From: a virus
Strand: one strand, 5' to 3'
DNA: 22,152 nucleotides
Virus record (IMG/VR): IMGVR_UViG_3300012936_004285
Location: 1 to 22,152 of that record
Shown: one piece after another, positions 2,151 to 21,468 of the stretch
How the letters are laid out: every line of letters starts with the position of its first letter
Position numbering within the stretch: position 1 is the stretch's first letter
Position numbers and translations under genes: made by a program
Notes under the pieces: model-generated
What the model was told of the DNA's origin: nothing
Seen by the model: the letters and a program-made list of their open reading frames with translations, nothing else
Database searches by the model: none

Positions 2151-2155
2151 CCTTT
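2151..2155 (-). promoter_or_regulatory. Ribosome binding site choosing the 2143 start of the GapR-like gene
   Basis: AAAGG followed by A lies seven bases before the ATG at 2143-2141 and just after the alternative ATG at 2158. It favours the shorter protein. Confidence 0.55.
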
Positions 2156-5100
2156 CATGCTAATAGTCTGAAACCAGACGAAACTCGTCTTGTACTAAAA
2201 CCCCACTGGGGATTATAATCTAGTTTAGCCATATAAGGGCGGTTTAGGTGGATTATGTCTTTTTCTGGTCTCACACCCCAACACCTTATTGAAGTAATCT
2301 CACTGTTACTATCGATAACCCTCAAAATGTAATAATCTTTATTGTTTTTAGTTTTCTTTCTGATAAGTTCCCTTGGAACAAACCAAACAACTCCCAACTC
2401 TGCGTCATATTCGCTAATCGGAGGAATATATAGTTCTTCCAAGCGACGCATAACATTTTCATTCATTACTAAGTTTAACGGAAAAGTACCTGTCAAGTCA
2501 ACTAAATACTGTATTTTTTCTTCTTCCGAAAAGTCTCCCTCTGGTGCATACTTCTCAATGTTTTCAAGTAGATTCTTTTCCTTTCTTGGCCTATCAATCG
2601 CTACAGCAGATACAAAATGTTTTAGACCTGTGAAGCGATCATCCATAAGGCAGTTTAAAGTCTGACTTTTAATCAAGGCACTGAGAGCTTTTTTGTTTAG
2701 CTTGCTGTATACAATGTCTTCATTGAAAATAAAATCTTCAATTGTATTAAAGGGCCTATTATCAATAATCTGCTCAATTGCTTTGTCACCTAACCCCTTG
2801 ATCGAGGTGAGTGGCTGAATTAGAGTTTTACCATCTTCACTAATCTCCCACACTGTACCGGAAGTATTAATATTAAGAGGTTCAATCCCAAAACCGTAAG
2901 CCTTAGCAACGTTGATGGCCCTCTCTTTTCTAGAGTCTGGCTCTTTGTCTAGAAAAGCCGCCATCCAACACTCAGGGTAATAATTAAGAAGCCATGCACA
3001 CTGAAAGGATAAAACACAGTAGGAAACCGCATGAGACTTGTTAAAGCCGTATCCTGAAAAGTATTCAAACTTCTCCCATAAATTTCTCGCTTCATGTAAT
3101 CGCATTCCTTTCTCAAGGCATCCTACCTTGAACTTTTCCCATATGATATCCTTTTGTTCTTGAACCCCGTCTGTCCCTTTTTTAGTTAGAAGTTTCCTTA
3201 GTTTGTTACCCTCATCTAGAGACAGATTCTTGCCCAGCATGTGCGCAAGCATAGCAATTTGTTCTTGAAAAATAAGAAAACCAAAAGTTTCTTTAGTCAC
3301 AGATTCCACAATATCGTTATCGTACTCAACATCAAATGGGTTTTCTTTTGCGCTAATAAACTGTTTATCAACTCCCGCCGAAAGAGGACCTGGACGATAA
3401 ATGCTGGTAATGGCTGCAAGTTCAATTATATTGTTTGGCTTTGCATTCTTACAAAAGGATTGTGCGCCAGCTTCTGTGAACTGGAATATACCTGCCCACT
3501 TTCCTTGGTGAAAGATATTTTGCCAGACTTCTTTATCTGAGAGGTCAATACTTTCTGGGTGTAAGTGTTTTTCATAGAACGATTTCACATCTTCAAAAGT
3601 AGGATCAGGCACACCTTCGTATCTTTTTAAAATGTGATGAATCGCATTCTCTACCATTCGCAGAGAAGCCAAACCAAGAATATCGAACTTAATAAAACCC
3701 ATTGGCTCCAAGTGTCTAACATTTTGCCCCTCGCTCCAGGGTGTTTGCCTTACACCCCCACTGTTAATTAGTGGCATCCACTCATTAAGCTTTTCTCCGA
3801 TAACAACACCGCCAGCATGACGCGAGGCCGATCTTGTTTGTCCATAAAGTCTTTCAATGTGATTCTTAATATCAGGATATTTCGCTAAAAACTTTTGCAA
3901 AGTTTCAGAATACTTCATCAATTCTTCAAAAGTAGGATTATAAACCCCTGCAGTGATACCATGAGCCTTCTTAGCTAGTGGTGTTGCTTCGAATATCATC
4001 TTGCTGGTTACTTTGTTGACTTCCTGGAAAGGCACTCCATAAAACTTGGAAATGTCCTTAACTAAGCTTCTTAATTGCAGGGTGTTCCAGTTTGTAATGG
4101 GCACAACTGTATCGTCGCCCCACTCATCAATAAGCTCTTCTTTCAAGGTCATCGGGTCCGAAACATCGTAGTCAATGTCAGGATATCCAGACCCGCCCTT
4201 CGTTAAAAATCTTTCAAATTGAAGGTTATATTTTATCGGGTCAATTTGGGTAATACCCAAGGTATAGGCAACTAGAGAACCAGCCGCAGAACCGCGTCCT
4301 GCCCCCACTAATTGCGATTTTGTAGCCCTGTCAGATATAGCTTTCATGGTCAAAAAATACTTACTAAAGCCACGATCATCGATAACTTCTATTTCTTTTT
4401 TGAGCCTTTCTGCATACTCTTTATTACGTGCCAAACCGAGTCCTCGGGCACCTTCGACACAGAGTCTGGCCAACGCTTCTCTTGGTGTGGCCCCAACAGG
4501 CACCACGAAATCAGGTAAGCGAACAGTATTATCAGGCATAAAATTGGCAATACGGTTATGGGCAATGTCATACGTTGCTTCAATAGATTTTCTAACCAAC
4601 TCGTCATCATATTTAACTTTTACCTTTTCTGAATATTTTTTATATGATTCCCACATTTGATCCCCATTTTTGGGGTATAGTTCATATCCGATCTCTTCTA
4701 CGTCAACTGGCAAATCATCACTAAGCCATTCAACCTTTCGTCCTAAAAAGCCCAGTCTCTTATATAGTTCCCTGTCTTTCCAAGCTTCTGGATTATAATA
4801 GTGACTATCAGCAGTTGAGATCAATTCAATCCCAAACTCATGATGCATTTGTATAATGTATTGATTTAGTTCGTGCTGTTCTGGTACGTCGTTCCATTGA
4901 AGCTCACCATACCATCGATCACCAAAAATAGACTGCATCTTTTGGGTTGTTTCCCTCATAGCATCCAGGATCGCATCGGGGCCGCTCTCTCTGTTCTCCC
5001 AATAATTGCCAGCATAAACTCCACCAAGACAAGCACTGGCAGCAATAACACCTTTGTTATACCTTTTGAGTGCAGCGTAATCTACACGGGGAAACCTATA

Positions 5101-5589
5101 GTAGTTTTCAGCACTGTAACTATCGGAAATTAGCTTAAAAATATTTTTAAGACCTTCTTGGTCCTGGGCTAAAAGAATTAGATGCCTTCTTCGGTTTAAA
5201 AGGCTTTTCATGGCCTTCTTAGATGCTTCATCCTCAACTGTTGTTCCGGTTTGGGTGTCGTCTAGTTGATTTTTATTTTTTACTCGCTCTCTAGCCTGTT
5301 CATATTCTTTTCTCCAGTTTGCGATAGAGGGCAAAAAGTATGCTTCAACGCCAAAGATCGGTTTAAAGTTCTTGCCCTGACTTTGCATTTTCTTGGCATG
5401 CAATACTTGATACGCTAGACCATTCTGGTTACCGTGATCAGTAAGTGCGAGCGCGTCCATTCCGTTATCATATGCAAAATCCATGTGCTCCGCAGGATAA
5501 CCCAGAGCATCAAAGATGCTCCCTGCAACACTGTGAGCGTGCAGTCCTACAAATTTAAGTTTTGACTCAACCCTATTGGATGGTTTCAA
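2155..5589 (-). CDS. dnaE: DNA polymerase III alpha subunit (family C)
   Basis: A replicative family-C polymerase of 1144 residues, close to the 1160 of E. coli DnaE, and apparently intact. Domains in order: PHP domain (about 10-270, with HAHS at 17-20, LTDHGNQNG at 49-57 and DSHYY at 261-265); palm with GAGRGSAAGSLVAYTLG (429-445); catalytic Asp pair in PDIDYD (D471, D473) and third Asp in KFDILGL (D636); fingers with YRPGP (732-736), FLIFQEQ (772-778) and GYGFNKSHAVSY (847-858); helix-hairpin-helix IKGLGDKA (931-938); and an OB-like C-terminal region (about 1080-1144). No 3'-5' exonuclease domain is fused. Partial retention of PHP His/Asp residues leaves PHP proofreading possible. The start is TTG at 5589 with a strong GGAGG; the gene overlaps its upstream neighbour by 17 bp. 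The T4 family-B polymerase is not in the window. Confidence 0.96.
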   Translation of the reverse strand: MKPSNRVESKLKFVGLHAHSVAGSIFDALGYPAEHMDFAYDNGMDALALTDHGNQNGLAYQVLHAKKMQSQGKNFKPIFGVEAYFLPSIANWRKEYEQARERVKNKNQLDDTQTGTTVEDEASKKAMKSLLNRRRHLILLAQDQEGLKNIFKLISDSYSAENYYRFPRVDYAALKRYNKGVIAASACLGGVYAGNYWENRESGPDAILDAMRETTQKMQSIFGDRWYGELQWNDVPEQHELNQYIIQMHHEFGIELISTADSHYYNPEAWKDRELYKRLGFLGRKVEWLSDDLPVDVEEIGYELYPKNGDQMWESYKKYSEKVKVKYDDELVRKSIEATYDIAHNRIANFMPDNTVRLPDFVVPVGATPREALARLCVEGARGLGLARNKEYAERLKKEIEVIDDRGFSKYFLTMKAISDRATKSQLVGAGRGSAAGSLVAYTLGITQIDPIKYNLQFERFLTKGGSGYPDIDYDVSDPMTLKEELIDEWGDDTVVPITNWNTLQLRSLVKDISKFYGVPFQEVNKVTSKMIFEATPLAKKAHGITAGVYNPTFEELMKYSETLQKFLAKYPDIKNHIERLYGQTRSASRHAGGVVIGEKLNEWMPLINSGGVRQTPWSEGQNVRHLEPMGFIKFDILGLASLRMVENAIHHILKRYEGVPDPTFEDVKSFYEKHLHPESIDLSDKEVWQNIFHQGKWAGIFQFTEAGAQSFCKNAKPNNIIELAAITSIYRPGPLSAGVDKQFISAKENPFDVEYDNDIVESVTKETFGFLIFQEQIAMLAHMLGKNLSLDEGNKLRKLLTKKGTDGVQEQKDIIWEKFKVGCLEKGMRLHEARNLWEKFEYFSGYGFNKSHAVSYCVLSFQCAWLLNYYPECWMAAFLDKEPDSRKERAINVAKAYGFGIEPLNINTSGTVWEISEDGKTLIQPLTSIKGLGDKAIEQIIDNRPFNTIEDFIFNEDIVYSKLNKKALSALIKSQTLNCLMDDRFTGLKHFVSAVAIDRPRKEKNLLENIEKYAPEGDFSEEEKIQYLVDLTGTFPLNLVMNENVMRRLEELYIPPISEYDAELGVVWFVPRELIRKKTKNNKDYYILRVIDSNSEITSIRCWGVRPEKDIIHLNRPYMAKLDYNPQWGFSTRRVSSGFRLLA

Positions 5590-6650: not shown

Positions 6651-7404
6651 AACTACTAAGTAGTATATCTTTGTCCTTTGTAGAATTCAAGAATTTTATG
6701 CTTTCTGAATCTTTATATATGTGTTCGCTCGTAAGAAATACTTCTCTATTCGAAGGTTCAAGTTTTACTGAGTTTCTTCTTACATTTCCATTTTTTTGAT
6801 ACCCAGATTTAGAGCCGAGTATGCCAGCTTCTTTTAGAACACTGTGTAATTTAAACTTTACCATAGTATCAGAATATTCAAACTCAAATAGTTGGTCTTT
6901 AGTGAGAGTAGAGACAGTAACAATATCTTTGTGATTCCGACTACCATCTACTCTATAAGACTTATAGAAATATATTTCTTCTGCTAAGTTGTCCTCCGAA
7001 CTTAAAAAACTAGTTTCATGTGGAGAGCAAGATCTGACATTCACCCAATCGTAGACTTTGTAAATTTCCTTGTTGTGTTTTATTATTTCATTGTCACAAA
7101 CTATTCTATTTCCGTTAAAAACAAAGCAACTATCAAACTGTATTTCTAATTTTTGATGGCGAGCTTGAACTACTTTGCAGTTACCCTCTTTTAAACGAAC
7201 AGACTCTATATTTTCAGTGTTTAGAACCTGGCCACGAAAAGACATTTCAAATAAAAGTTCTGACCAAAGCTTTAATGATTCAACTCTATCAAAGCGAAAG
7301 GGCTTGTAGTATGTGTCACATATTAAGCTATACTTGTTTTGATGTGCATAGATAACCGAAGGTAGACAGCCACCTATGACAATATTAGGGTAAGCAAGCT
7401 TCAT
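6643..7404 (-). CDS. Hypothetical protein with a Rossmann-like N-terminus
   Basis: A 253-residue protein I cannot assign. It opens with a beta-strand and Gly-rich turn, NIVIGGCLPSVIYAHQNKYSLIC (split as strand, loop GGCLPS, helix, strand), which recalls the dinucleotide-binding start of FAD/NAD proteins such as UDP-galactopyranose mutase-type enzymes, but GxGxxG is not intact. The rest is beta-rich and charged, with no cofactor motif I can recognise. The start overlaps the end of the MopE/VWA gene by 20 bp, and its own end overlaps the 291-residue gene by 8 bp. The two therefore form a translationally linked pair and probably act together. Candidate roles include an inactive flavoprotein scaffold or a modification enzyme partner; both are inference. 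Confidence 0.55.
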   Translation of the reverse strand: MKLAYPNIVIGGCLPSVIYAHQNKYSLICDTYYKPFRFDRVESLKLWSELLFEMSFRGQVLNTENIESVRLKEGNCKVVQARHQKLEIQFDSCFVFNGNRIVCDNEIIKHNKEIYKVYDWVNVRSCSPHETSFLSSEDNLAEEIYFYKSYRVDGSRNHKDIVTVSTLTKDQLFEFEYSDTMVKFKLHSVLKEAGILGSKSGYQKNGNVRRNSVKLEPSNREVFLTSEHIYKDSESIKFLNSTKDKDILLSSYA

Positions 7405-9622
7405 CTATAATTGACATTAGATTTTCGTACATCTGGTTTTGATTCATGGTAAGCTCAAAGTTAATTCCGTTTGCTGAATTAGCAAGCCTTGTCCAATCTG
7501 CATTTCCCATACCACCTGAAAATGTGTACAGTTTTAAATCGGGTGTGCCAGCCATTGCATCTCTAACAGTTGCGGCATTAATACCAGGATCAAGATATGT
7601 CTGTGGCTCTTCATCACTAAAAACTATAATTATCTTTCTAGCTCCTGCTCTCCAGTTTATTATAAAATTTTCCTTTTCTGGTGTTGAGCCTGTACCATTA
7701 CCAACCCATCTTGCAGCTGCAACATCAAAGTTGTTATTTGCTGTGACATTTTGTACCGCAAAATACATTGCATCTAGCAGCATCTCTGAACCTGTGTCCA
7801 TGCCCTCGTTTCCAAGTTGTGCAAATCTATTTAAAAACACATTAAAAGGTGAGATGTTTGATACCAGTATCAAGTTTTCATGTGTTCCCGGTGTGTCTTT
7901 GGGGCCAACAACGAGACCCCACTGTAATTGATCTTCAGCCTGGAATTGTGTTGCAAATCTATTTAGGGCAACTTTTACTGCTTCAATCTCTTCTACCATA
8001 GAACCAGACCAGTCAACGATAAACAAAATGTCTGTATCAGCTATTTCTTCACCATAGTCCACTTCGCCATCGCAGTCGTTATCAGCACCATCGCACACCT
8101 CTTCTTGCGGTGTAACTTCACCCAAACAGTAGTTTCTGGTGAATACATCAACCTCTTCCCAGTTGCCCCAAACTCCTTCTTTACATATCATCTCACCCGG
8201 TAGACATACGCCGACACCCGCTGTATTTTCTGGGCCAGTATAACACGGGGACGTCACACCTTCGTCGATGGCTTCATCGCAGTCTTCATCAAAATTATTA
8301 CAAAGTTCATTTTGCAGTGCCACACCAAGGCGAGGGTCGCATGGTCCTTGGTTTTGTGGCAGATATGCACATATTGCCTGGCAGTCTGACATTGTGAGCG
8401 CACTACACTCTTCATCTACACATTCACAAGTTTTAAAACCTTGACCACATATCAGTGGTGGTTCAGAGCAGGGTATCAGGACTCCAACATCCTGTAGTGT
8501 GCAAGAACAATCAAGCCCCTCATCTACTGCTCCGTCACAGTCATCGTCTTCGCCATTACATATGTTACCTTCTTCAACCGGCTGCCTAGCTGTACAAGAT
8601 ATCCAGTTTCCATCTGAACATGTTTCAAATCCAAGTTCGCATTCTGTTTGACACTCTCTAAGTAAGTCTTCGTCTATCGCACCATCGCAGTCATTATCTA
8701 GGCCATCACACTCATCTGCAGGTACAGGGCCGCAACCATCACAAACATTCCTCTGCCCCTCATCTGTGTCTCCATCACAGTCATTATCCTGAAAGTCGCA
8801 AACCTCTTCTCTAGGTTGTTGTGCTGTACAATCTGCCAATTCACCATCAACACAAACTGCCTGACCTGCTTCGCATATTGTTTCACAAGGGAAAAAACCC
8901 TCGTCAACCCTCTCATCACAATCATCATCAACCAGGTTGCAGGTTTCCTCTGGCAGTTCCTGATCACCGCGACATTCACATAAGGTAAACCCTTCATCAA
9001 CGGGGCCATCGCAGTCGTTGTCAATCGCATCACACACCTCTTCTACAGGTGTAACCTGATCGATACACTCTCCGTAACCATATATTTGATGAATCTCTCC
9101 TGTCCATTCATCTTCAACCTCTTCTAAAAGTTGGCACGTAGATATCCCTGATTTGCATGGTGGATTTTTAATTGTATTGGGAGGGCCTGTGTAGCAAGAG
9201 CGTGCTAACAATTCATTTTGTGAATACTCATCTTCGTCTGTTGCTCCATCACAGTCATTATCAACGCCATCACAAACTTCCATTCTAGGAAAATTTATTT
9301 GAAAGCATTGACTCCAGTATGTAATATTGCAAGATTGCTGGCCTTCTGCACAAGGCCCAAGAAACTCTTCTAAGACACAAGGTCTGCGATGCTGGTGAAA
9401 CTCACAAACTATCGTTTCCGCATCTGGGAGAAGCGCGTCAGGCAAAGCGTCGCGACGTGCTTGAATTACTCTGGAATCAACCGCACTGTCTTCTATTGCC
9501 ATATCATAATTGTTTATGCGTAAAGGAGACGCATCCTGCGGTAGTTCTGATCCTTGTACAACAGTTTCGTCATTGCAAGATAGTAACAAAAACGAACAGA
9601 CAAAGATGAGTGCTTTTTGCAT
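7385..9622 (-). CDS. Secreted lipoprotein with eight MopE-type Cys/Asp repeats and a VWA domain
   Basis: A 745-residue predicted lipoprotein. Residues 1-16 form a short hydrophobic signal ending in the lipobox LLSC, with C16 as the lipid site and Asn at +2. Residues 117-522 hold eight copies of the C-x4-D-x-D-C-D-x3-D-E pattern (typical form VCDGxDNDCDGxxDE), starting near C117, C197, C228, C275, C305, C355, C441 and C510, as in the MopE family of putative metal-binding repeats. Between them are two CYTGP...C...C modules (143-163, 460-480). Residues about 528-745 are a VWA domain with the MIDAS motif D537-W-S-G-S and a downstream SDEEPQTY segment. This architecture is typical of Myxococcota and related bacteria and implies an extracellular, Ca/Mg-dependent adhesion role. 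It lies between the co-chaperonin gene (1-base gap) and two unknown genes. Confidence 0.9.
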   Translation of the reverse strand: MQKALIFVCSFLLLSCNDETVVQGSELPQDASPLRINNYDMAIEDSAVDSRVIQARRDALPDALLPDAETIVCEFHQHRRPCVLEEFLGPCAEGQQSCNITYWSQCFQINFPRMEVCDGVDNDCDGATDEDEYSQNELLARSCYTGPPNTIKNPPCKSGISTCQLLEEVEDEWTGEIHQIYGYGECIDQVTPVEEVCDAIDNDCDGPVDEGFTLCECRGDQELPEETCNLVDDDCDERVDEGFFPCETICEAGQAVCVDGELADCTAQQPREEVCDFQDNDCDGDTDEGQRNVCDGCGPVPADECDGLDNDCDGAIDEDLLRECQTECELGFETCSDGNWISCTARQPVEEGNICNGEDDDCDGAVDEGLDCSCTLQDVGVLIPCSEPPLICGQGFKTCECVDEECSALTMSDCQAICAYLPQNQGPCDPRLGVALQNELCNNFDEDCDEAIDEGVTSPCYTGPENTAGVGVCLPGEMICKEGVWGNWEEVDVFTRNYCLGEVTPQEEVCDGADNDCDGEVDYGEEIADTDILFIVDWSGSMVEEIEAVKVALNRFATQFQAEDQLQWGLVVGPKDTPGTHENLILVSNISPFNVFLNRFAQLGNEGMDTGSEMLLDAMYFAVQNVTANNNFDVAAARWVGNGTGSTPEKENFIINWRAGARKIIIVFSDEEPQTYLDPGINAATVRDAMAGTPDLKLYTFSGGMGNADWTRLANSANGINFELTMNQNQMYENLMSIIDEACLP
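8057..9274 (-). repeat. Protein-level repeat array: eight MopE-type Asp/Cys repeats
   Basis: Eight degenerate copies of about 13-15 codons with the core DNDCDG..DE or close variants (DDDCDE, DEDCDE), separated by 31-86 residues of Cys-rich linker. At the DNA level they appear on the plus strand as recurring variants of tcatcgcagtcattatc-like words. The copies differ at many third positions, so the array is old or selected for diversity rather than recently duplicated. Confidence 0.85.
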
Positions 9623-13273: not shown

Positions 13274-14242
13274 TTATGGAAGATTAAAATCCGACACCAT
13301 CTTATTAAATGACTGGAAAAGATCATTTAAAGATATCTCCCCGATGCCGTCTTTGTGCATCATGCCTCTTAAAGAGGTCTTGTTAAACTCTGGAACGTGT
13401 TGTTCTAGTGTTTCTTGTATTCTGTTTCTACCCTGTATTGATATCGACGGAGAATACAATTGCATAATTTGATAGTTTTCTTTGATCAACTTTTCGGAAT
13501 TAGCAACATTGGTATAGACTTTTAAAATCTCAGAATTTTGCTCGGCAAAATTTATAACATCTGACAACATTGCTTCCTTTTCAGATTTCATAAATGGAAA
13601 CCTCTTTGCAACAGTGGCAAGGCCGACTCCCTTGACGCCCTTTAGATTATCACTCTTATCTCCAACAATAGCTCTAGCCATCGCAAAATTGTTTGGGTGA
13701 ATTTCAAATTTCTCTAAGATTTTATTTTTGTTTAAAATCTCATCCTGTGTCGGACGGAAAAGAATAGTGTTATCATCTAAAAGTTGGATGTAATCCTTGT
13801 CGCTAGATACAATCACTTTTTGTGCGCCACTTAAAAAGCTAAGCCTACAAACATAAGCAATTACATCATCTGCTTCCACATGTGGCTCCATAAATTGAAT
13901 CACTGGAGTAGAGTTTAGATACTCTATAATTCTAAGTTGCTGCCAGATTCTATTTAGTTTTTCCTGCTCCTCTGTCAAGCTGCTGTTGCCCCTGTTTAGC
14001 CTGATTGGCTTTCTCCCCTCTTTATAGTTTTTGTTGACCGCTCTTCGCTTTTGAGAACCACCTTCACCGTCCCAGACAACCACAATTGCACTGGGCTTAA
14101 TAGTTCTAGTCAGCTTATTTAATATTTTTAAAAACCCCTTGGACCCACCAATTGGTTGGCCATTTGAAGACAAGCTAGGGTCAACTATATAAGAGCGCAA
14201 AAACTGATTTTGCGCATCGATGATCATAATCCTGTCGTTCAT
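13274..14242 (-). CDS. 5'-3' exonuclease / flap endonuclease (RNase H type)
   Basis: Phage FEN-family nuclease, expected to remove RNA primers and 5' flaps from lagging-strand fragments. The 322 residues are near T4 RNase H (305). Acidic metal ligands fall in the family order: D9 (MIIDAQN), D58 (VVWDGEG), E123/D125/D126 (VEADDVIAY), D148/D150 (VSSDKDYIQLL) and D195/D198 (VGDKSDNLKGVKGVG). The last leads into the helix-three-turn-helix that grips DNA. Its start shares one base with the UVDE stop (TGATG), with GAGGG about eight bases upstream, so the two are coupled. The family-A polymerase in this window lacks a fused nuclease domain, so this gene probably supplies that activity in trans. Confidence 0.92.
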   Translation of the reverse strand: MNDRIMIIDAQNQFLRSYIVDPSLSSNGQPIGGSKGFLKILNKLTRTIKPSAIVVVWDGEGGSQKRRAVNKNYKEGRKPIRLNRGNSSLTEEQEKLNRIWQQLRIIEYLNSTPVIQFMEPHVEADDVIAYVCRLSFLSGAQKVIVSSDKDYIQLLDDNTILFRPTQDEILNKNKILEKFEIHPNNFAMARAIVGDKSDNLKGVKGVGLATVAKRFPFMKSEKEAMLSDVINFAEQNSEILKVYTNVANSEKLIKENYQIMQLYSPSISIQGRNRIQETLEQHVPEFNKTSLRGMMHKDGIGEISLNDLFQSFNKMVSDFNLP

Positions 14243-15174
14243 CAGGCTGCCCTCTCTAGCAATAGATCACGATACCTGATTAAAGACAGCTCTTTTGCCT
14301 TTGCTTCAATCATCATATCGTAGTCACACCCATAATTATTAACAGGTTCGTATACATAGTCAGAGTGAGCTTGAGGTCTAATTTTATTATCACCTTGCTC
14401 TTCTCTTCTAGATTCAGAAAGGTGTACTACTGGCTTAATACCATCGGGCCATGTGGACGCTGCCATCTTTACCGCCTCTTCTTCAGATTGGCCGCCAGTG
14501 CAAAATTTAAAATGGTGATAGTCAAAAACGATTGGAACGCCTACCCTGCTGTATATCAACTCATAAAGGTGTTTAACTGACCACATAGAAGCCTTATCAT
14601 CATTCTCCAGGGTAAGCCTAGCTCTTGTGCCTTCATCTAATTTTAAGAAATTCTCACACCACCTATTTGCCGTACCTTCAAAGTCTCCACCGTAAGTTCC
14701 GCCAACATGAATGTTGATTTTGTTGTAGTGACTTGGGATAAAACCCATCAAGTCCATCATCTCTGAATGTTGGTTTAATTCTTTGATTGTTTTGTTGATA
14801 ACAGATTCTTTGGGTGAGCCAAGAACATTGAAAGGTCCAGGGTGAAAAGTTAGTCTCTGGTTGTTTAGTGTTACAAACTCTCCTACCTGGTCAAGTACAT
14901 AGCAAATCTCGTTGTAATCTGGCAAGTCGCCAAATTCATACTCACTCATCCATGGAAAAATATCTGAAGACATTCTGTAAAACTTGATATTGTTTCGCTC
15001 ATTCCATTCTACAATCTTTTTTAAGTCTTTTACATTCTGCAAAGCCAGCTCGGATGCGTAAGAAATACCCTTCTCTAAAAAGGTTTTCTTAATCATTGAG
15101 CGATTAGTTGTAATTCTTTTTGATTTTGGCAGACTGGAGAAGCCCATGTTGATGCAAGCATAGCCAAGATTCAT
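14242..15174 (-). CDS. uvsE: UV damage endonuclease (UVDE/UvsE)
   Basis: Nicks DNA 5' of UV photoproducts and starts an alternative excision repair. The 310 residues form the family's TIM barrel. Candidate metal ligands are in the expected order: H111 (TFHPGP), H156 (NIHVGG), E190 (LTLENDD), D218 and H221 (FDYHH), H251 (VVHLSE), H270 (QAHSDYV) and E289 (MIEAK). The N-terminus LGYACINMGF matches the family start. From memory, characterised enzymes have a modified Lys two residues before the HLS histidine; here that site is Val and the nearest Lys is four residues before, so chemistry may differ. It is the first gene of the long operon, behind a sigma70-type promoter, with AAAGG about nine bases before the ATG. 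Confidence 0.92.
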   Translation of the reverse strand: MNLGYACINMGFSSLPKSKRITTNRSMIKKTFLEKGISYASELALQNVKDLKKIVEWNERNNIKFYRMSSDIFPWMSEYEFGDLPDYNEICYVLDQVGEFVTLNNQRLTFHPGPFNVLGSPKESVINKTIKELNQHSEMMDLMGFIPSHYNKINIHVGGTYGGDFEGTANRWCENFLKLDEGTRARLTLENDDKASMWSVKHLYELIYSRVGVPIVFDYHHFKFCTGGQSEEEAVKMAASTWPDGIKPVVHLSESRREEQGDNKIRPQAHSDYVYEPVNNYGCDYDMMIEAKAKELSLIRYRDLLLERAA

Positions 15175-15206: not shown

Positions 15207-15235
15207 ACAATACCAAAAAAGACGGGTTATGTCAA
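15207..15235 (-). promoter_or_regulatory. Sigma70-type promoter for the long replication operon
   Basis: On the minus strand TTGACA (15235-15230) is followed by a 17-base spacer and TATTGT (15212-15207). The -35 box is a perfect consensus and overlaps the stop codon of the phosphatase gene; the -10 box matches at 4 of 6 positions. Alternative -10 candidates lie a few bases downstream in the palindromic gtataatac. It precedes uvsE by about 33 bases and is the only promoter-like gap before the run of genes down to IMPDH. Confidence 0.6.
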
Positions 15236-15912
15236 CTTGATTTAATGTTTGGGAAGAGATATTTTTTAGCTATACTTTTGCCCTCTTTGTTGTCGCTAGG
15301 ATAGTGAGCGCCGCGAACAATCCTTGAGTGTTCTATTTTTTCAGCAATATCATACAACTCGTCTTTATGTTTTGGGTGCTTGTCTGCTAGGTAGTAAGCT
15401 AAAGTCCAAGCTTGAGCCGTGTGACCGCTTGGGTATGCTGGAGTATCGTCAGTCTCAGTTTTAATCGAGCTAACATCATAGCCAACTTTTGGGCCTAGTT
15501 GTTCTGGTCTTGGTCTGTTATACCTAACTTTTAACTTGAGAGTTATTATAGCTACATCCTTTACAATGTCCTCTAACATGTCTTTATCAAAGTCAAGATC
15601 ATTGTCTTTTAAGTATTTAACAAACATTTGTTTAGGTCTTTTGTCTGTTTGCTCTAATTCTTTCTTTGATAATTCTTTATTGTTTGTCATGGAATTGAGA
15701 ACTTTTTTAAGCTCGCCCTTAACAGCATCGCTATCGTTTGCTGGATATTTAGTTATCGGAATATCAGAAAGTTCAACGTCAATAACTTTTGTTTGTTGAG
15801 ATAGTCTCTTCTTGTGCTTATTATGCTTTAATTCACCATACTTAAGGTCTCTTATTTCTTGCTTTTTGTTTTCAATAAGAAATTTATTCCAACTTTCCAT
15901 AATGGCTTTCAT
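15232..15912 (-). CDS. Soluble PAP2-type acid phosphatase with a capsid-targeting-like N-terminus
   Basis: A 226-residue PAP2/vanadium-haloperoxidase-fold phosphatase. All three family motifs are present: K128-x6-R135-P, P161-S-G-H164, and S196-R197-x5-H203-x3-D207, where H203 is the expected phospho-acceptor. There are no transmembrane helices, so unlike lipid phosphatases it is soluble, and no secretion signal is seen. The N-terminus MKAIMESWNKFLIEN resembles the T4 capsid-targeting leader of internal proteins (MKTYQEFIAE, cut after the Glu by the prohead protease), with a possible cut after LIE. Residues 16-110 are Lys-rich and helical. The start is ATG at 15912, since the GTG at 15921 lies inside the Shine-Dalgarno sequence. 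The gene stands alone between a terminator and a promoter. The substrate is unknown. Confidence 0.85.
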   Translation of the reverse strand: MKAIMESWNKFLIENKKQEIRDLKYGELKHNKHKKRLSQQTKVIDVELSDIPITKYPANDSDAVKGELKKVLNSMTNNKELSKKELEQTDKRPKQMFVKYLKDNDLDFDKDMLEDIVKDVAIITLKLKVRYNRPRPEQLGPKVGYDVSSIKTETDDTPAYPSGHTAQAWTLAYYLADKHPKHKDELYDIAEKIEHSRIVRGAHYPSDNKEGKSIAKKYLFPNIKSS

Positions 15913-15920
15913 GTAAGGCA

Positions 15921-15926
15921 CCTCCT
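15921..15926 (-). promoter_or_regulatory. Strong ribosome binding site of the PAP2 phosphatase gene
   Basis: AGGAGG lies eight bases before the ATG at 15912-15910. The in-frame GTG at 15921-15919 overlaps this site and so cannot be the start. This matters because it places the leader-like MKAIMES sequence at the exact N-terminus. Confidence 0.8.
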
Positions 15927-16009: not shown

Positions 16010-17149
16010 TTATTCTTCCTTGACTGGCGGGTCTCCTGATTCCTCTGACTCATAAAAGTCAGCGGCGTTTCCTTCTCTATTACAGAATTTCATTATAACA
16101 TCTTCATCAATGATTTGTAAAACTCTTTTTCTAAAATTTTCATCTTTTAGTTCTTCGGTCCACCTTTTGCGCTGGAACTTCTTTTCTGTCCCATCCTCAA
16201 AAACAAGTGTGTACCAAGCGCCAGACTGCTTTAAGCTGTTTGAAATTTGAATTGCTTCAAACCAACTCTCTTCATCCTGGACACCGACTGTGTCGGTATT
16301 ACCCCAAAGAATTTTAAAGTTACAATGACGTCCTGCAGTGCCAAACCTTGACTTCTCAAGTTTGGCCTTCACCTCCGAACCAACTCGGAAGCCATTATCA
16401 TCCAATACAAAAGCCGCCTTTGCTTTTCTGCCTGTCAGCCAAATCCTCAAAGAGTATGCATAATGCATAGCTTTACCACCAGGTGTTACCCACGGTGTTA
16501 CCATAGCCTCTGATGGAGATCTTGTGATGTTAGTTTTTAGCTGGTTAAGGACTAAGAAAGTAGCCTGATTATTAGCGATTGGAACGGTCAGTTTTGACAT
16601 TCCCTTCGATAAAATCCTAGGCTTAACAGCCATTGAAGATTGTGGATTAAAGTCCCCTTCAACATCAGAGATAGATGGCGTCAAAGCCAAAGAATCCCAA
16701 ATAAAAAGCCACTTGTTATCTGTAGATAACAACTCTTCAATAGTTTCTAGTACAAACTCAACTGATTCTGCCTGGACATACATAAGCCTAGACAAGTCAC
16801 AGCCAGCTCTTTCTAGAAAGCCTGGATCAATAGCAGACTCGGAATCAAAATAGACAACATCAATGCCCATCTTTTGTGCATTACCAGCAATTTGTGCTGC
16901 CATAAAAGATTTGCCTGTTGCCTCAAGACCTGCAATCTCTACAACTTTACCAACAGGAATGCCTGCTAGTTTACCCTTGCAGATAATTGAATCTAACCAC
17001 CTGGAACCAGTTGGAATCCACTCCTTTACCTCAGTTGGGTTGTCCTCCTTAAGAGAGTGGGCAATCTCCCTGCCCGCTTTCTTATTAAGAAGTTTTCTTA
17101 TTTCGTCTACATTTAAAGACCCTGTTTTTGGTTTAACCATTTTAAGCAA
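16010..17149 (-). CDS. recA: RecA/UvsX-type recombinase
   Basis: Strand-exchange ATPase for recombination-dependent replication and repair. The 379 residues carry Walker A GLEATGKS (74-81), catalytic Glu in FDSESA (E104), Walker B WLFIWDSL with D152, and a DNA-binding loop region VLNQLKTNITRSPSE through VTPGGKAMHYAYS. The N-terminal segment KEWIPTGSRWLDSII matches the RecA/UvsX pattern for the strand before the core. The C-terminal tail is acidic (YESEESGDPPVKEE), as in many RecA proteins. The start is probably TTG at 17149, with GGAGG exactly six bases upstream; the ATG at 17140 would be 15 bases away. It overlaps the DUF262-type gene by 8 bp and ends at a strong terminator. Confidence 0.93.
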   Translation of the reverse strand: MLKMVKPKTGSLNVDEIRKLLNKKAGREIAHSLKEDNPTEVKEWIPTGSRWLDSIICKGKLAGIPVGKVVEIAGLEATGKSFMAAQIAGNAQKMGIDVVYFDSESAIDPGFLERAGCDLSRLMYVQAESVEFVLETIEELLSTDNKWLFIWDSLALTPSISDVEGDFNPQSSMAVKPRILSKGMSKLTVPIANNQATFLVLNQLKTNITRSPSEAMVTPWVTPGGKAMHYAYSLRIWLTGRKAKAAFVLDDNGFRVGSEVKAKLEKSRFGTAGRHCNFKILWGNTDTVGVQDEESWFEAIQISNSLKQSGAWYTLVFEDGTEKKFQRKRWTEELKDENFRKRVLQIIDEDVIMKFCNREGNAADFYESEESGDPPVKEE

Positions 17150-18464
17150 CTTTATCCTCCTTTATTTGATCAACTTCCTTCTTTGCCAAGAGTGAATTAA
17201 ACTTTGAACTAGATTTTAGTTTGTCAATAAGAGTCTCGCTTCGGCTAGCACGGTCCCCACTTTGATGAGGAAGTTGCGACTGTCTATGATAGAAGGCACT
17301 TTCACTAGGAGTTTGTCTATCATTTTTCAATGCCGACTTTACTTCTGCTGCAAACTTTGCTTGTGAGTCTGCGTAGAGGGAAATATCAGTGTTTACAACT
17401 AAATCATAAAGAACATCTTGGTCAAGAACCCTGCAATCTGAATCGTAAATGTGTGTGCATGCATGAAGCAGTGCCCAGCAGACTCTTGCAGGAATAATTT
17501 TATTGTTAAGTTTTCCCTCGTTTGAGATAACCAAGTCCTGTAGGGCGTACAATATACCCTCTACCCTTTCAAGCTCACTTGAAAGATAGGGAGAATTGTC
17601 CTCATCTTCGATGGAATACGCAGCCTTACCTCTATTATAAAAATAATCTAATTCACTTTTTCCCAAGGGTAATCCCACAGGTGTATTTAATTTGCCCTTA
17701 CTACTAGTAGTCTCGTCCTTAGTTTGTCTATATTCTCTAATTAGAGAAAGGGCAAACTTTGCCACTAGTTCATCATCAACCATTCTAGCAATGTGCTTTT
17801 TGGATACCAAATGCTTAAATAGGGGTGCAAAGTCGCTTGACATATCCCTCACCCACTCTGCGATTGCAGATTTAATTGCATTTCGCATTTCTTGAGCTGA
17901 TTGTTTAACTCCAGCATTTAAAGCAATATAAAGTTCTGATAGTTCGTCTACTGTTAAAGTGTTAAAGCGCGTAACTGTAGTTGCAGTCTGTTCCAAATTT
18001 AATTTAACAGACTCAGGAAAGTCTTTGTAGAATTTGTTTTTTATATATACATCTACACCTTCATTGTTACGAAGCCAACCAGTGAATGCAAACTCATTGT
18101 TATATAACTCTCTTAAGGTTACTAGTCTATTTTGAGCATCTATATTAATATAGTACTTGGCCCGATCATACATTTCTTGGTAGTAATGTTTTGAGTTAGT
18201 GCACTTTGTTGGAGAGCATGGATCTTCAAAATACTCCTTTGCTTCTCTAACTTGTGCAAAGACAAACTTAGATACAGCCCACCCCTTTGCAAAACTCTCT
18301 ACATACTCACATTTCTGCTTCTTTGACCACACCTCACGTCTTTGAAAACTGCGATCAACTTCTACATTATCTTCTGAAAACTTTTTCAGTAATGAACGCA
18401 ACCGATATTCGCTTTCTATTTTGTGCTCTTCTGCCAAAAGATGGCTATCAACTTGATTTTTCAC
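17142..18464 (-). CDS. DUF262/ParB-like domain protein of unknown function
   Basis: A 440-residue protein whose N-terminal 120 residues follow the DUF262 (ParB/sulfiredoxin-like) pattern: V.VDRSFQRREVWSKKQ (34-49), YVESFAKGWAVSKFVF (54-69), and YINIDAQNRLVTLREL (105-120). The usual family motif DGQQR is D109-A-Q-N-R113 here. Two cysteines (C83, C88) lie in an insertion between these motifs. The C-terminal 300 residues are helical and not recognised; there is no HNH (DUF1524) motif of the kind found in GmrSD-type nucleases. It sits directly upstream of recA with an 8-bp overlap, so a role in recombination or genome protection is plausible but unproven. The start is GTG at 18464 with AGGAGG eight bases upstream. 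Confidence 0.75.
   Translation of the reverse strand: MKNQVDSHLLAEEHKIESEYRLRSLLKKFSEDNVEVDRSFQRREVWSKKQKCEYVESFAKGWAVSKFVFAQVREAKEYFEDPCSPTKCTNSKHYYQEMYDRAKYYINIDAQNRLVTLRELYNNEFAFTGWLRNNEGVDVYIKNKFYKDFPESVKLNLEQTATTVTRFNTLTVDELSELYIALNAGVKQSAQEMRNAIKSAIAEWVRDMSSDFAPLFKHLVSKKHIARMVDDELVAKFALSLIREYRQTKDETTSSKGKLNTPVGLPLGKSELDYFYNRGKAAYSIEDEDNSPYLSSELERVEGILYALQDLVISNEGKLNNKIIPARVCWALLHACTHIYDSDCRVLDQDVLYDLVVNTDISLYADSQAKFAAEVKSALKNDRQTPSESAFYHRQSQLPHQSGDRASRSETLIDKLKSSSKFNSLLAKKEVDQIKEDKVA
17156..17160 (-). promoter_or_regulatory. Ribosome binding site supporting the TTG start of recA
   Basis: GGAGG lies six bases before TTG at 17149-17147, inside the end of the DUF262-type gene. The in-frame ATG at 17140 is 15 bases away, too far for normal initiation. 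The spacing equals that of the dnaE and dut TTG starts. Confidence 0.7.
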
Positions 18465-19453: not shown

Positions 19454-20290
19454 TTATCTTTGAATTTGTGAAGAATATTCTACAACAAACCCAAAATTGG
19501 TTTCATAGTCAGTTTCGTATATTGAATAACTAACTCCAACATTTTGGGTTTGTTTTTCTTTCAACTGATTTAGGATTTTTTTATGCAAACCTTTCTCGCT
19601 TTCAAGTGTTGATTTATTTATAGCATAATAGTATCTTTTTTCTTTTACTTCGTCAAGAGAAAAGAACATATTTTCTTGATTATTTTCCAACTCAAAAAAA
19701 CCAATGGTATGTATCCTAGAAGTTTCAGAAACGTCTGAGAACGTAGAACTGACCGGTTTAACGTGATTAAAATAGTTAATCATATGGAAGGCATCAGCTA
19801 CCGTTTTATTAAGTAAATTAAAGTGTTCTGATATGGAAACCTCTTGCAAAAACTCTTCGATAGTTTCGTTGGATACCAATAGAATATTTTTAAAAACTGC
19901 AGACCTAGCATACTCTTGAAGTACACCATATACTACTCTTTCTTGTAGCTTTTCCTTTTCACTCAAAAAAGAAACATCAGGCTTTATGTACAGAACAGAT
20001 ATACTGCACTTCTTAGAGAGGTACTCCAAGATAACCAAAGACGCAGCTGCAGCCCTTGAGCAGCCGCTAACCATAAAAAGAATGTCACCTTCAACTTTAG
20101 TAAGCTTACGCTTAAAATTTAAATTAACAGTTTCATAATCCTCTGGATTGTTGAGGGTTGGTATTTTTATAAAGTTATTTTGTTTTCTATCGCCTTTGTC
20201 ATTTATCTTATAAACCTTGTACTGTTCATAATTTTCAAAATGGCTTGCAAGGTTGCAGGCAGAGGTTCCTAGAGCTATTATTTTTTCCAT
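19454..20290 (-). CDS. Divergent FtsZ/tubulin-like protein (tentative)
   Basis: A 278-residue protein with an FtsZ/tubulin-like order of elements. Residues 3-16 (KIIALGTSACNLAS) resemble the first strand and Gly loop (xVIGVGGAGxNAV). Residues 67-94 (EGDILFMVSGC-SRAAAASLVILEYLSKK) match the strand and helix around the tubulin signature GGGTGTG, but the loop reads GCSRAAAAS. SVLYIKPDVSF then EKLQERVVYGVLQEY (98-127) resemble the following strand and helix. NILLVSNETIEEFL (135-148) resembles VIPNDRLL. NKTVADAFHMINYF (161-174) resembles the AF..AD..L helix. With the Gly signature altered, GTP hydrolysis is doubtful. It overlaps the family-A polymerase gene by 13 bp, with GAGG just before its ATG. 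The assignment is by eye; another Rossmann-like fold remains possible. Confidence 0.6.
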   Translation of the reverse strand: MEKIIALGTSACNLASHFENYEQYKVYKINDKGDRKQNNFIKIPTLNNPEDYETVNLNFKRKLTKVEGDILFMVSGCSRAAAASLVILEYLSKKCSISVLYIKPDVSFLSEKEKLQERVVYGVLQEYARSAVFKNILLVSNETIEEFLQEVSISEHFNLLNKTVADAFHMINYFNHVKPVSSTFSDVSETSRIHTIGFFELENNQENMFFSLDEVKEKRYYYAINKSTLESEKGLHKKILNQLKEKQTQNVGVSYSIYETDYETNFGFVVEYSSQIQR

Positions 20291-21468
20291 GATACCTCTT
20301 TCATGTCCAGCAAATTCTTACCCATCTTTACGTTCACTCTTGTCTTACCAAATCTAGTTTCTTCAAACATTTTAATTATAGATTTAGCAACCGATATATC
20401 TTCTGAAGAGTAATCTAAAATCAACGAGTCATGCATCATAAAAGCAATATTACTGTTTTTGTCTTTAAGAGTCAAGTTTATTTTTTGAGCTTGCTCTAAT
20501 AAAATATCATTAGAAAAAGACTGTAATATATAATTTACAGCGTGAAACTCATCACATTCTATGACTCTGCCATAAGGAGTAGTAATTTTCTCTCCGTCGT
20601 AAAACTTTGATTTTATACTATCTCTGTCATATTCTTTATTTAAAAGGTGATCGCTAGACTCCTGGTTATAGAGCCAGGCAAATACTCTTTTCTTTGCTTC
20701 ATCTCTGGTAATTGAATTATTAAAAACATTTCGACAGTTCCAATCGTGTATGTCTAAGTCTGGCTGTTCTCTATCTAATAAAAACAGCAGTGCTCTCAGT
20801 TCTGCACCGTTAACATCTATCTCTAGAAATAGATCGTTGTTTGGCACAACAAACTTGCGCAACTCTCTATCTAGATTTAAAATAGGAAAAGTCTTCTTTT
20901 TACAAGTTAGTCTTCCAGTCTTTGTACCAAAGATATCATAATCTATTCTCATAGTAAGTTTTTTAATCTTGCGAAAAAACCTATTTATCTTTGAAGGGCC
21001 AAGTGATCTTTTTAACTTTTTCATATCTAATTTGATGTTATTTTTTTTAATGTCTGAAACAAGTTTTGATGCACCAAGCAGATGATCGTAAATACTAGTC
21101 TTCTGATTGTTTTCTATAATATGTTTGGTTATGGTATTTTTAACCTGATAATAATCAATCAATATATGTTCTGGAATTATCTCGTACAAGCAATTTGTAT
21201 TGCAATCAACCTTGGCTGTTACCAGTGCCTTTTTGACTCTGTCCATTTTTCTATTTACTCTGTCCAGATCTTCTTTAAGATGCGGGGGGCATGCTTTATC
21301 TATAGTTTTAGCCTGAATTAGAAGTTGGGCTATGGTAGCTTTGTCTGAAACGTCATCAAAATATGACCAAGTACCTGAATATTCTAAATTTTCTGCTTCA
21401 AAAATCTGCCCACTATCAGAAACAAAAAGATTGCAGTCTCCCTTGTTGTCAATTTTTTGAATAATCAC
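20278..21468 (-). CDS. Compact family-A DNA polymerase (polymerase domain only)
   Basis: A 396-residue PolA-type polymerase with no exonuclease domain. Residues 1-130 are unassigned. The core has TGRLT (184-188), motif A as LEIDVNGAELRALL with catalytic D218 and E223, motif B as R255-x3-K259-x3-F263-x3-Y267, Q316 in the YILQSFSND segment, and motif C as MMHDSLILD with catalytic D347. These are the key residues of the fold, although motif C has HDS instead of the nearly universal HDE, and thumb and fingers are much reduced. Phe at the F762-equivalent site predicts discrimination against dideoxynucleotides. The start is GTG, sharing one base with the previous stop (TAGTG). Proofreading and primer removal would have to come from other genes, such as the exonuclease at 13274-14242. 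It coexists with DnaE. Confidence 0.85.
   Translation of the reverse strand: MIIQKIDNKGDCNLFVSDSGQIFEAENLEYSGTWSYFDDVSDKATIAQLLIQAKTIDKACPPHLKEDLDRVNRKMDRVKKALVTAKVDCNTNCLYEIIPEHILIDYYQVKNTITKHIIENNQKTSIYDHLLGASKLVSDIKKNNIKLDMKKLKRSLGPSKINRFFRKIKKLTMRIDYDIFGTKTGRLTCKKKTFPILNLDRELRKFVVPNNDLFLEIDVNGAELRALLFLLDREQPDLDIHDWNCRNVFNNSITRDEAKKRVFAWLYNQESSDHLLNKEYDRDSIKSKFYDGEKITTPYGRVIECDEFHAVNYILQSFSNDILLEQAQKINLTLKDKNSNIAFMMHDSLILDYSSEDISVAKSIIKMFEETRFGKTRVNVKMGKNLLDMKEVSWKK

What the first reader, a model, noticed from the sequence alone, without database searches (positions are those of the whole stretch)
15232..15912. PAP2 phosphatase with a T4-type capsid-targeting leader: a candidate packaged enzyme
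The chosen start places MKAIMESWNKFLIEN at the N-terminus. This resembles the T4 leader MKTYQEFIAE, which sends internal proteins into the prohead and is removed by the prohead protease after a (L/I)-x-E site. If correct, a soluble acid-phosphatase-like enzyme would be carried in the capsid and injected with the DNA to act early on host phosphate compounds.
Basis: partly seen in the sequence, partly recalled or inferred. Interest (0 to 1): 0.7.

Follow-up and report, generated by a model that had tools for sequence, protein, structure and literature searches.

The report
Phosphatase tagged for phage-head packaging
A marine phage gene encodes an intact acid-phosphatase-like enzyme whose first 14 amino acids match a short tag found at the start of many unrelated phage proteins, often beside the head-maturation protease gene, so the enzyme is probably packed into the virus head and injected into the host; packaging itself has not been shown.

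Summary
The gene is real: 15232-15912 (-), ATG start, AGGAGG 8 nt upstream. It encodes a soluble PAP2 / class A acid-phosphatase-like enzyme with intact catalytic motifs (Pfam E 4e-9; AlphaFold pLDDT 93; best PDB folds are acid phosphatases).

The leader MKAIMESWNKFLIE belongs to a recurrent class, consensus MKLIMENWRKFLxE. It starts unrelated ORFs; [LIVM]-x-E follows at residues 12-14 in 57%, against 1.3% background.

Leader genes often sit beside the T4 gp21-type (S77) protease gene. Contigs sharing the window's replication module (DnaB 75-84%) carry S77 and, in three of four examined closely, leader genes. Both PAP2 orthologues (65-67%) keep the leader and lie among other leader genes; about 78 distant phage PAP2s lack it.

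The tag is a longer analogue of the T4 capsid-targeting sequence; homology is not shown. Cleavage, packaging, injection and substrate are inferred: the window is a 22-kb fragment without head genes or a second leader gene.

The parts
15232..15912 (-). PAP2 / acid-phosphatase-like gene with N-terminal leader (226 aa)
   Evidence: ORF; PF01569 E 4.4e-9; AlphaFold pLDDT 93; PDB folds 7f17/7f18, PhoC, PhoN
15871..15912 (-). Leader codons 1-14, MKAIMESWNKFLIE; predicted cut after E14 (LIE|N)
   Evidence: Matches the leader pattern and PSSM; kept in both orthologues; the cut itself is inferred
15921..15926 (-). Shine-Dalgarno AGGAGG, 8 nt before the ATG
   Evidence: Sequence
15505..15531 (-). Catalytic motif 1, K128-x6-R135-P136
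   Evidence: Translation and invariant columns
15421..15432 (-). Catalytic motif 2, PSGH (161-164)
   Evidence: Invariant columns
15292..15327 (-). Catalytic motif 3, S196-R197-x5-H203-x3-D207
   Evidence: R, H and D invariant
14242..15174 (-). UvdE-type UV endonuclease, inserted together with PAP2 between RecA and FEN
   Evidence: PF03851 E 1.6e-57; in most relatives RecA and FEN are adjacent
16010..17149 (-). UvsX/RecA recombinase, upstream neighbour
   Evidence: PF00154; phrog_97

Best explanation
The gene encodes a soluble acid-phosphatase-like PAP2 enzyme fused to a capsid-targeting leader. SHOWN: the enzyme has intact catalytic motifs; the leader belongs to a class carried by many unrelated phage proteins; leader genes cluster with each other and with the gp21-type protease gene; both orthologues keep the leader. 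INFERRED: during head assembly the leader helix binds the prohead core, the S77 protease cuts after E14 (LIE|N), and the basic 24.5-kDa enzyme (pI 9.3) stays in the head with the DNA and enters the host at infection. There it would remove phosphate from host nucleotides, nucleotide signals or other phosphomonoesters. The substrate is a guess, weakly guided by Nudix and nucleotidyltransferase-like neighbours with variant leaders in relatives.
For: Leader recurs on unrelated ORFs: at least 120 viral stretches vs 16 for the reversed pattern; 116 of 132 viral matches but 0 of 62 matches in cellular genomes are real leader ORFs. [LIVM]-x-E at 12-14 in 57% vs 1.3% background, positions not fixed by the search. 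S77 protease in 14 of 20 leader contigs. 35 leader-S77 pairs in 31 loci, all same strand, 28 of them 0.6-3 kb upstream and 3 directly downstream in the scaffold position. Relatives of the window carry S77 and leader genes and a Gp23 capsid protein whose propeptide has matching L-x-E sites. Both PAP2 orthologues keep the leader and lie among leader genes. T4 precedent for a 10-residue CTS sufficient for packaging and delivery (PMC9026906).
Against: No proteomic or experimental data. The window has no protease and no second leader gene. In 11 of 113 leader proteins no [LIVM]-x-E was found in residues 11-25, so cleavage may not be universal. P1' asparagine is not a common residue at that position in the sample. 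PAP2 is a rare cargo: absent from 25 relatives and 49 leader contigs. Leader positions 1, 2, 5, 6, 8 and 11 are conserved by construction of the search.
Confidence: 0.68

Rival explanations
1. The leader binds the prohead core, but the protein serves head assembly (a core component) or is expelled or degraded before DNA packaging; it is not delivered to the host.
For: Many leader genes lie where T4 has its core and scaffold genes, next to the protease.
Against: An enzyme with all catalytic residues kept across orthologues is not needed for scaffolding; PAP2 and other leader genes also lie far from the protease in enzyme clusters.
Confidence: 0.15
2. The leader is an amphipathic helix with another role (host membrane or replication-compartment targeting, or a translation or stability element), and the nearness to the protease is incidental.
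For: The leader is amphipathic by hydrophobic moment, strongly only for the consensus. Function was not tested.
Against: Conserved L-x-E after F11, same-strand adjacency to S77 in 31 loci, S77 enriched in leader contigs (14 of 17 vs 3 of 13). Synonymous codons vary, against an RNA-level element.
Confidence: 0.12
3. The match is chance and this is an ordinary cytoplasmic phage phosphatase acquired as a metabolic gene.
For: About 78 other phage PAP2 homologues have no such leader.
Against: Exact match to a leader pattern not found on real ORF starts in cellular genomes; conserved in both orthologues, which lie among other leader genes, while 25 contigs with leaderless PAP2 have no leader match at all.
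Confidence: 0.03

Closest known systems
T4 capsid targeting sequence (CTS) of IPI, IPII, IPIII and Alt
   Same: Short N-terminal peptide starting MK, ending F-[LI]-x-E, on unrelated proteins, in phages with a gp21-type S77 protease and Gp23 capsid; residues just before the cut are hydrophobic and E (PMC9026906).
   Different: 14 rather than 10 residues; consensus MKLIMENWRKFLxE with W8; on many more, mostly uncharacterised proteins; homology to the T4 peptide not shown; no packaging data.
Propeptides of SPN3US and phiKZ-like giant phages
   Same: Head proteins with N-terminal propeptides removed by the prohead protease; SPN3US head proteins enter the host (PMC5694885, PMC7411985).
   Different: SPN3US propeptides are mostly over 100 residues and cut after A-x-E (PMC5694885, PMC10052503); here 14 residues and L-x-E.
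Class A acid phosphatases (PhoN, PhoC, Pseudomonas acid phosphatase 7f17)
   Same: PAP2 fold and catalytic motifs, soluble.
   Different: Bacterial enzymes of this class are secreted (own knowledge); this one has a phage head-type leader instead of a signal peptide, and only about 20-26% identity in the structure alignments.

Membership tests
T4-type capsid targeting sequence | Short N-terminal peptide shared by otherwise unrelated proteins of the same phage | tested here: met
   G077 nine, G076 four, G022 two, G019 two leader genes; in the window itself only one
T4-type capsid targeting sequence | Prohead protease of gp21 (S77) type in the same phage | tested here: met
   Met in relatives and in the contig of orthologue G076; not testable in the window fragment
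T4-type capsid targeting sequence | [LI]-x-E cleavage motif at the end of the leader | tested here: met
   LIE at 12-14 in the window; 57% of 113 leaders vs 1.3% background
T4-type capsid targeting sequence | Sequence homology to MKTYQEFIAE | tested here: inconclusive
   Only MK and F-[LI]-x-E shared by eye; too short for a homology test
T4-type capsid targeting sequence | Protein is packaged, cleaved and injected | not testable with these tools
   Needs virion proteomics or a packaging assay
PAP2 superfamily | Pfam PF01569 above gathering score and K-x6-RP, PSGH, SR-x5-H-x3-D | tested here: met
   36.6 bits vs 27.2; motif residues
PhoC acid phosphatase (NCBIfam equivalog) | Score above the NCBIfam PhoC cut-off | tested here: not met
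   31.6 bits vs cut-off 430; related fold, not a PhoC equivalog

The most novel reading that the evidence does not exclude
An uncultivated marine branch of T4-like phages uses one 14-residue head-targeting tag as a general delivery address, grafted onto many unrelated proteins (PAP2, GNAT acetyltransferases, zeta-toxin-like kinases and, with variant leaders, Nudix and nucleotidyltransferase-like proteins) that are injected with the DNA, so that candidate injected proteins can be listed from metagenomes by reading N-termini.
Probability: 0.6. Interest if true: 0.8.

Novelty: new variant of a known kind. Interest (0 to 1): 0.62.

Why it matters
Injected head proteins are the first phage products to act in a host, yet the cargo of uncultivated phages is unknown. 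A sequence tag readable from metagenomes would give a direct catalogue of candidate injected proteins, with a phosphatase among them, and a simple proteomic test.

Tried and rejected
Strict leader pattern in LR756508 and Microcystis phage Mel-JY01: none. PAP2 in 25 replication-module relatives and 49 leader contigs: none, so PAP2 is a rare cargo. A second leader class (M-x-SL-x-LFEE) suggested by longer phage PAP2 proteins of S77 contigs was not repeated on other genes of G095 and G087 and was dropped. Phage-collection searches found only weak PAP2 matches or none. First search for related loci with the single PAP2 sequence found nothing; the alignment query did. Literature: no held paper has the string MKLIMENW; searches for CTS with cyanophage and for PAP2 phage genes gave nothing specific; the library lacks most subscription journals.

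Full report
OBSERVATION. The ORF at 15232-15912 (-) is real. The ATG at 15912 has AGGAGG 8 nt upstream; the longer GTG start overlaps that site. The product is 226 aa, starts MKAIMESWNKFLIENKKQ and matches PF01569 PAP2 (E 4.4e-9). Nearest solved structures by sequence are class A acid phosphatases. AlphaFold on an alignment of 49 phage homologues gives mean pLDDT 93.2; the best PDB folds are 7f17/7f18, PhoC and PhoN (TM about 0.6-0.7). K128, R135, P136, PSGH, R197, H203 and D207 are invariant in those homologues.

THE LEADER IS A RECURRENT CLASS. In the sampled loci 116 of 132 matches are high-scoring starts of ORFs of 50 aa or more; of 62 matches in bacterial and archaeal genomes none is. The fixed residues are conserved by construction. 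Not fixed are L at 3 (79 of 113), N at 7 (73 of 113) and [LIVM]-x-E at 12-14 (57% against 1.3% elsewhere in the same proteins). Synonymous codons vary, so selection is on the peptide. The proteins behind the leader are unrelated: of 100, Pfam names only GNAT acetyltransferases (4) and a few zeta-toxin or P-loop kinase domains; PHROGs gives mostly families of unknown function.

LINK TO HEAD ASSEMBLY. Of 20 leader contigs searched whole, 14 hold an S77 (gp21-type) protease. In sampled loci there are 35 leader-S77 pairs in 31 loci, all on the same strand: 28 leader genes start 0.6-3 kb upstream of the protease ORF, 3 start directly after it, which is the scaffold position in T4, and 4 lie 7-9 kb away. 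Among contigs of 100 kb or more, S77 occurs in 14 of 17 leader contigs and 3 of 13 PAP2 contigs without leader (Fisher p 0.0024). Two of the three leader contigs without S77 (G003, G004) look like fragments of phages whose longer contigs (G009, G001) have it, judged from identical leader positions or spacing. Contigs are not fully independent, so the p value is a guide only.

THE WINDOW'S OWN LINEAGE. The window is the whole record held and has no head genes. Its DnaB finds contigs at 75-84% identity with the module SSB, RecA, FEN, DnaB, RNR conserved. Eight of 25 such contigs carry S77, including five of the six of 140 kb or more. A PSSM at ORF starts finds leader genes in G022 (2), G026 (1), G019 (2) and the window (1), none in G021, and none in any reversed sequence (one further low-scoring internal G019 match is not counted). 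The strict pattern found leaders in only 2 of the 25, so leader use or leader sequence varies within the lineage. G022 has a T4-type head cluster with S77 and Gp23; its Gp23 propeptide holds LTE, LLE, LLE and LRE sites, the last as LRE|A. Beside the two G022 leader genes lie a Nudix gene (PF00293) and a nucleotidyltransferase-like gene with variant leaders MFKKWWSLLKEE and MINFNKKWKNFVNE; G077 repeats the pair.

THE PAP2 ORTHOLOGUES. A PAP2 alignment query found two orthologues at 65-67% over residues 1-224: MKLIMENWNSFLTENKKQ (G076) and MKLIMENWNNFLSENKKK (G077). G076 has S77 on the same contig, and its PAP2 lies in a run of leader genes with overlapping or nearly touching ends. G077 has nine leader genes on 63 kb. 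About 78 further phage PAP2s (28-44%) lack the leader, and 25 of their contigs searched whole have no leader match. Leader identity between the window and its orthologues is 71%, equal to the catalytic part and above the linker. In the window, PAP2 and UvdE sit between RecA and FEN, which are adjacent in most relatives; in G019 the same gap holds the two leader genes.

MECHANISM. In T4, residues 4 and 7 of the CTS matter for targeting and 8 and 10 for processing (PMC9026906). The T4 end F7-I8-A9-E10 lines up with F11-L12-x-E14 here. By analogy the leader helix binds the core, S77 cuts after E14, and the basic mature enzyme (24.5 kDa, pI 9.3) is retained and injected. These steps are inference. 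The substrate is unknown.

VERDICT. The tag works like a T4 CTS in every respect that sequence can show; homology to it and actual packaging were not shown.

Noticed in passing
window 7385-9622 (-): 745-aa putative lipoprotein with three MopE-type metal-binding repeats and a VWA domain, unusual in a T4-like phage; possible hint to the host group.
   Followed up: no
window 2155-5589 (-) and 20278-21468 (-): The phage encodes a bacterial-type DNA polymerase III alpha subunit (TIGR00594) as well as a partial family A DNA polymerase (PF00476).
   Followed up: partly
window 17142-18464 (-): GmrSD_N (DUF262)-like protein just under the Pfam cut-off, between SSB and RecA; only 2 of 84 relatives searched have a match.
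   Followed up: no
L241:6849-7886 (-) (G022) and G077 47904-48902 (-): Short adenylosuccinate synthetases inside the leader-gene clusters; the G022 one matches PurA models better than PurZ and is below all cut-offs. Could bear on base modification.
   Followed up: partly
L344-L423: A large family of phage PAP2 proteins (28-44% to the window), including a 416-434-aa form and an 886-aa form, none found in the cultured-phage collection with one member as query.
   Followed up: partly
L466:7340-7567 (+), Flavobacterium phage immuto: Small gene right after the prohead protease of a cultured relative starts MENNFDIHKWQAKFLKES, with a W-x3-F-L-x-E like the leader end; a possible proteomics target.
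   Followed up: no
L123 and L122 records (W02, W01): Microcystis phage Mel-JY01 and the 484-kb uncultured phage LR756508 have S77 but no strict leader match; in LR756508 the S77 match falls in two pieces about 1 kb apart, perhaps an insertion such as an intein.
   Followed up: no
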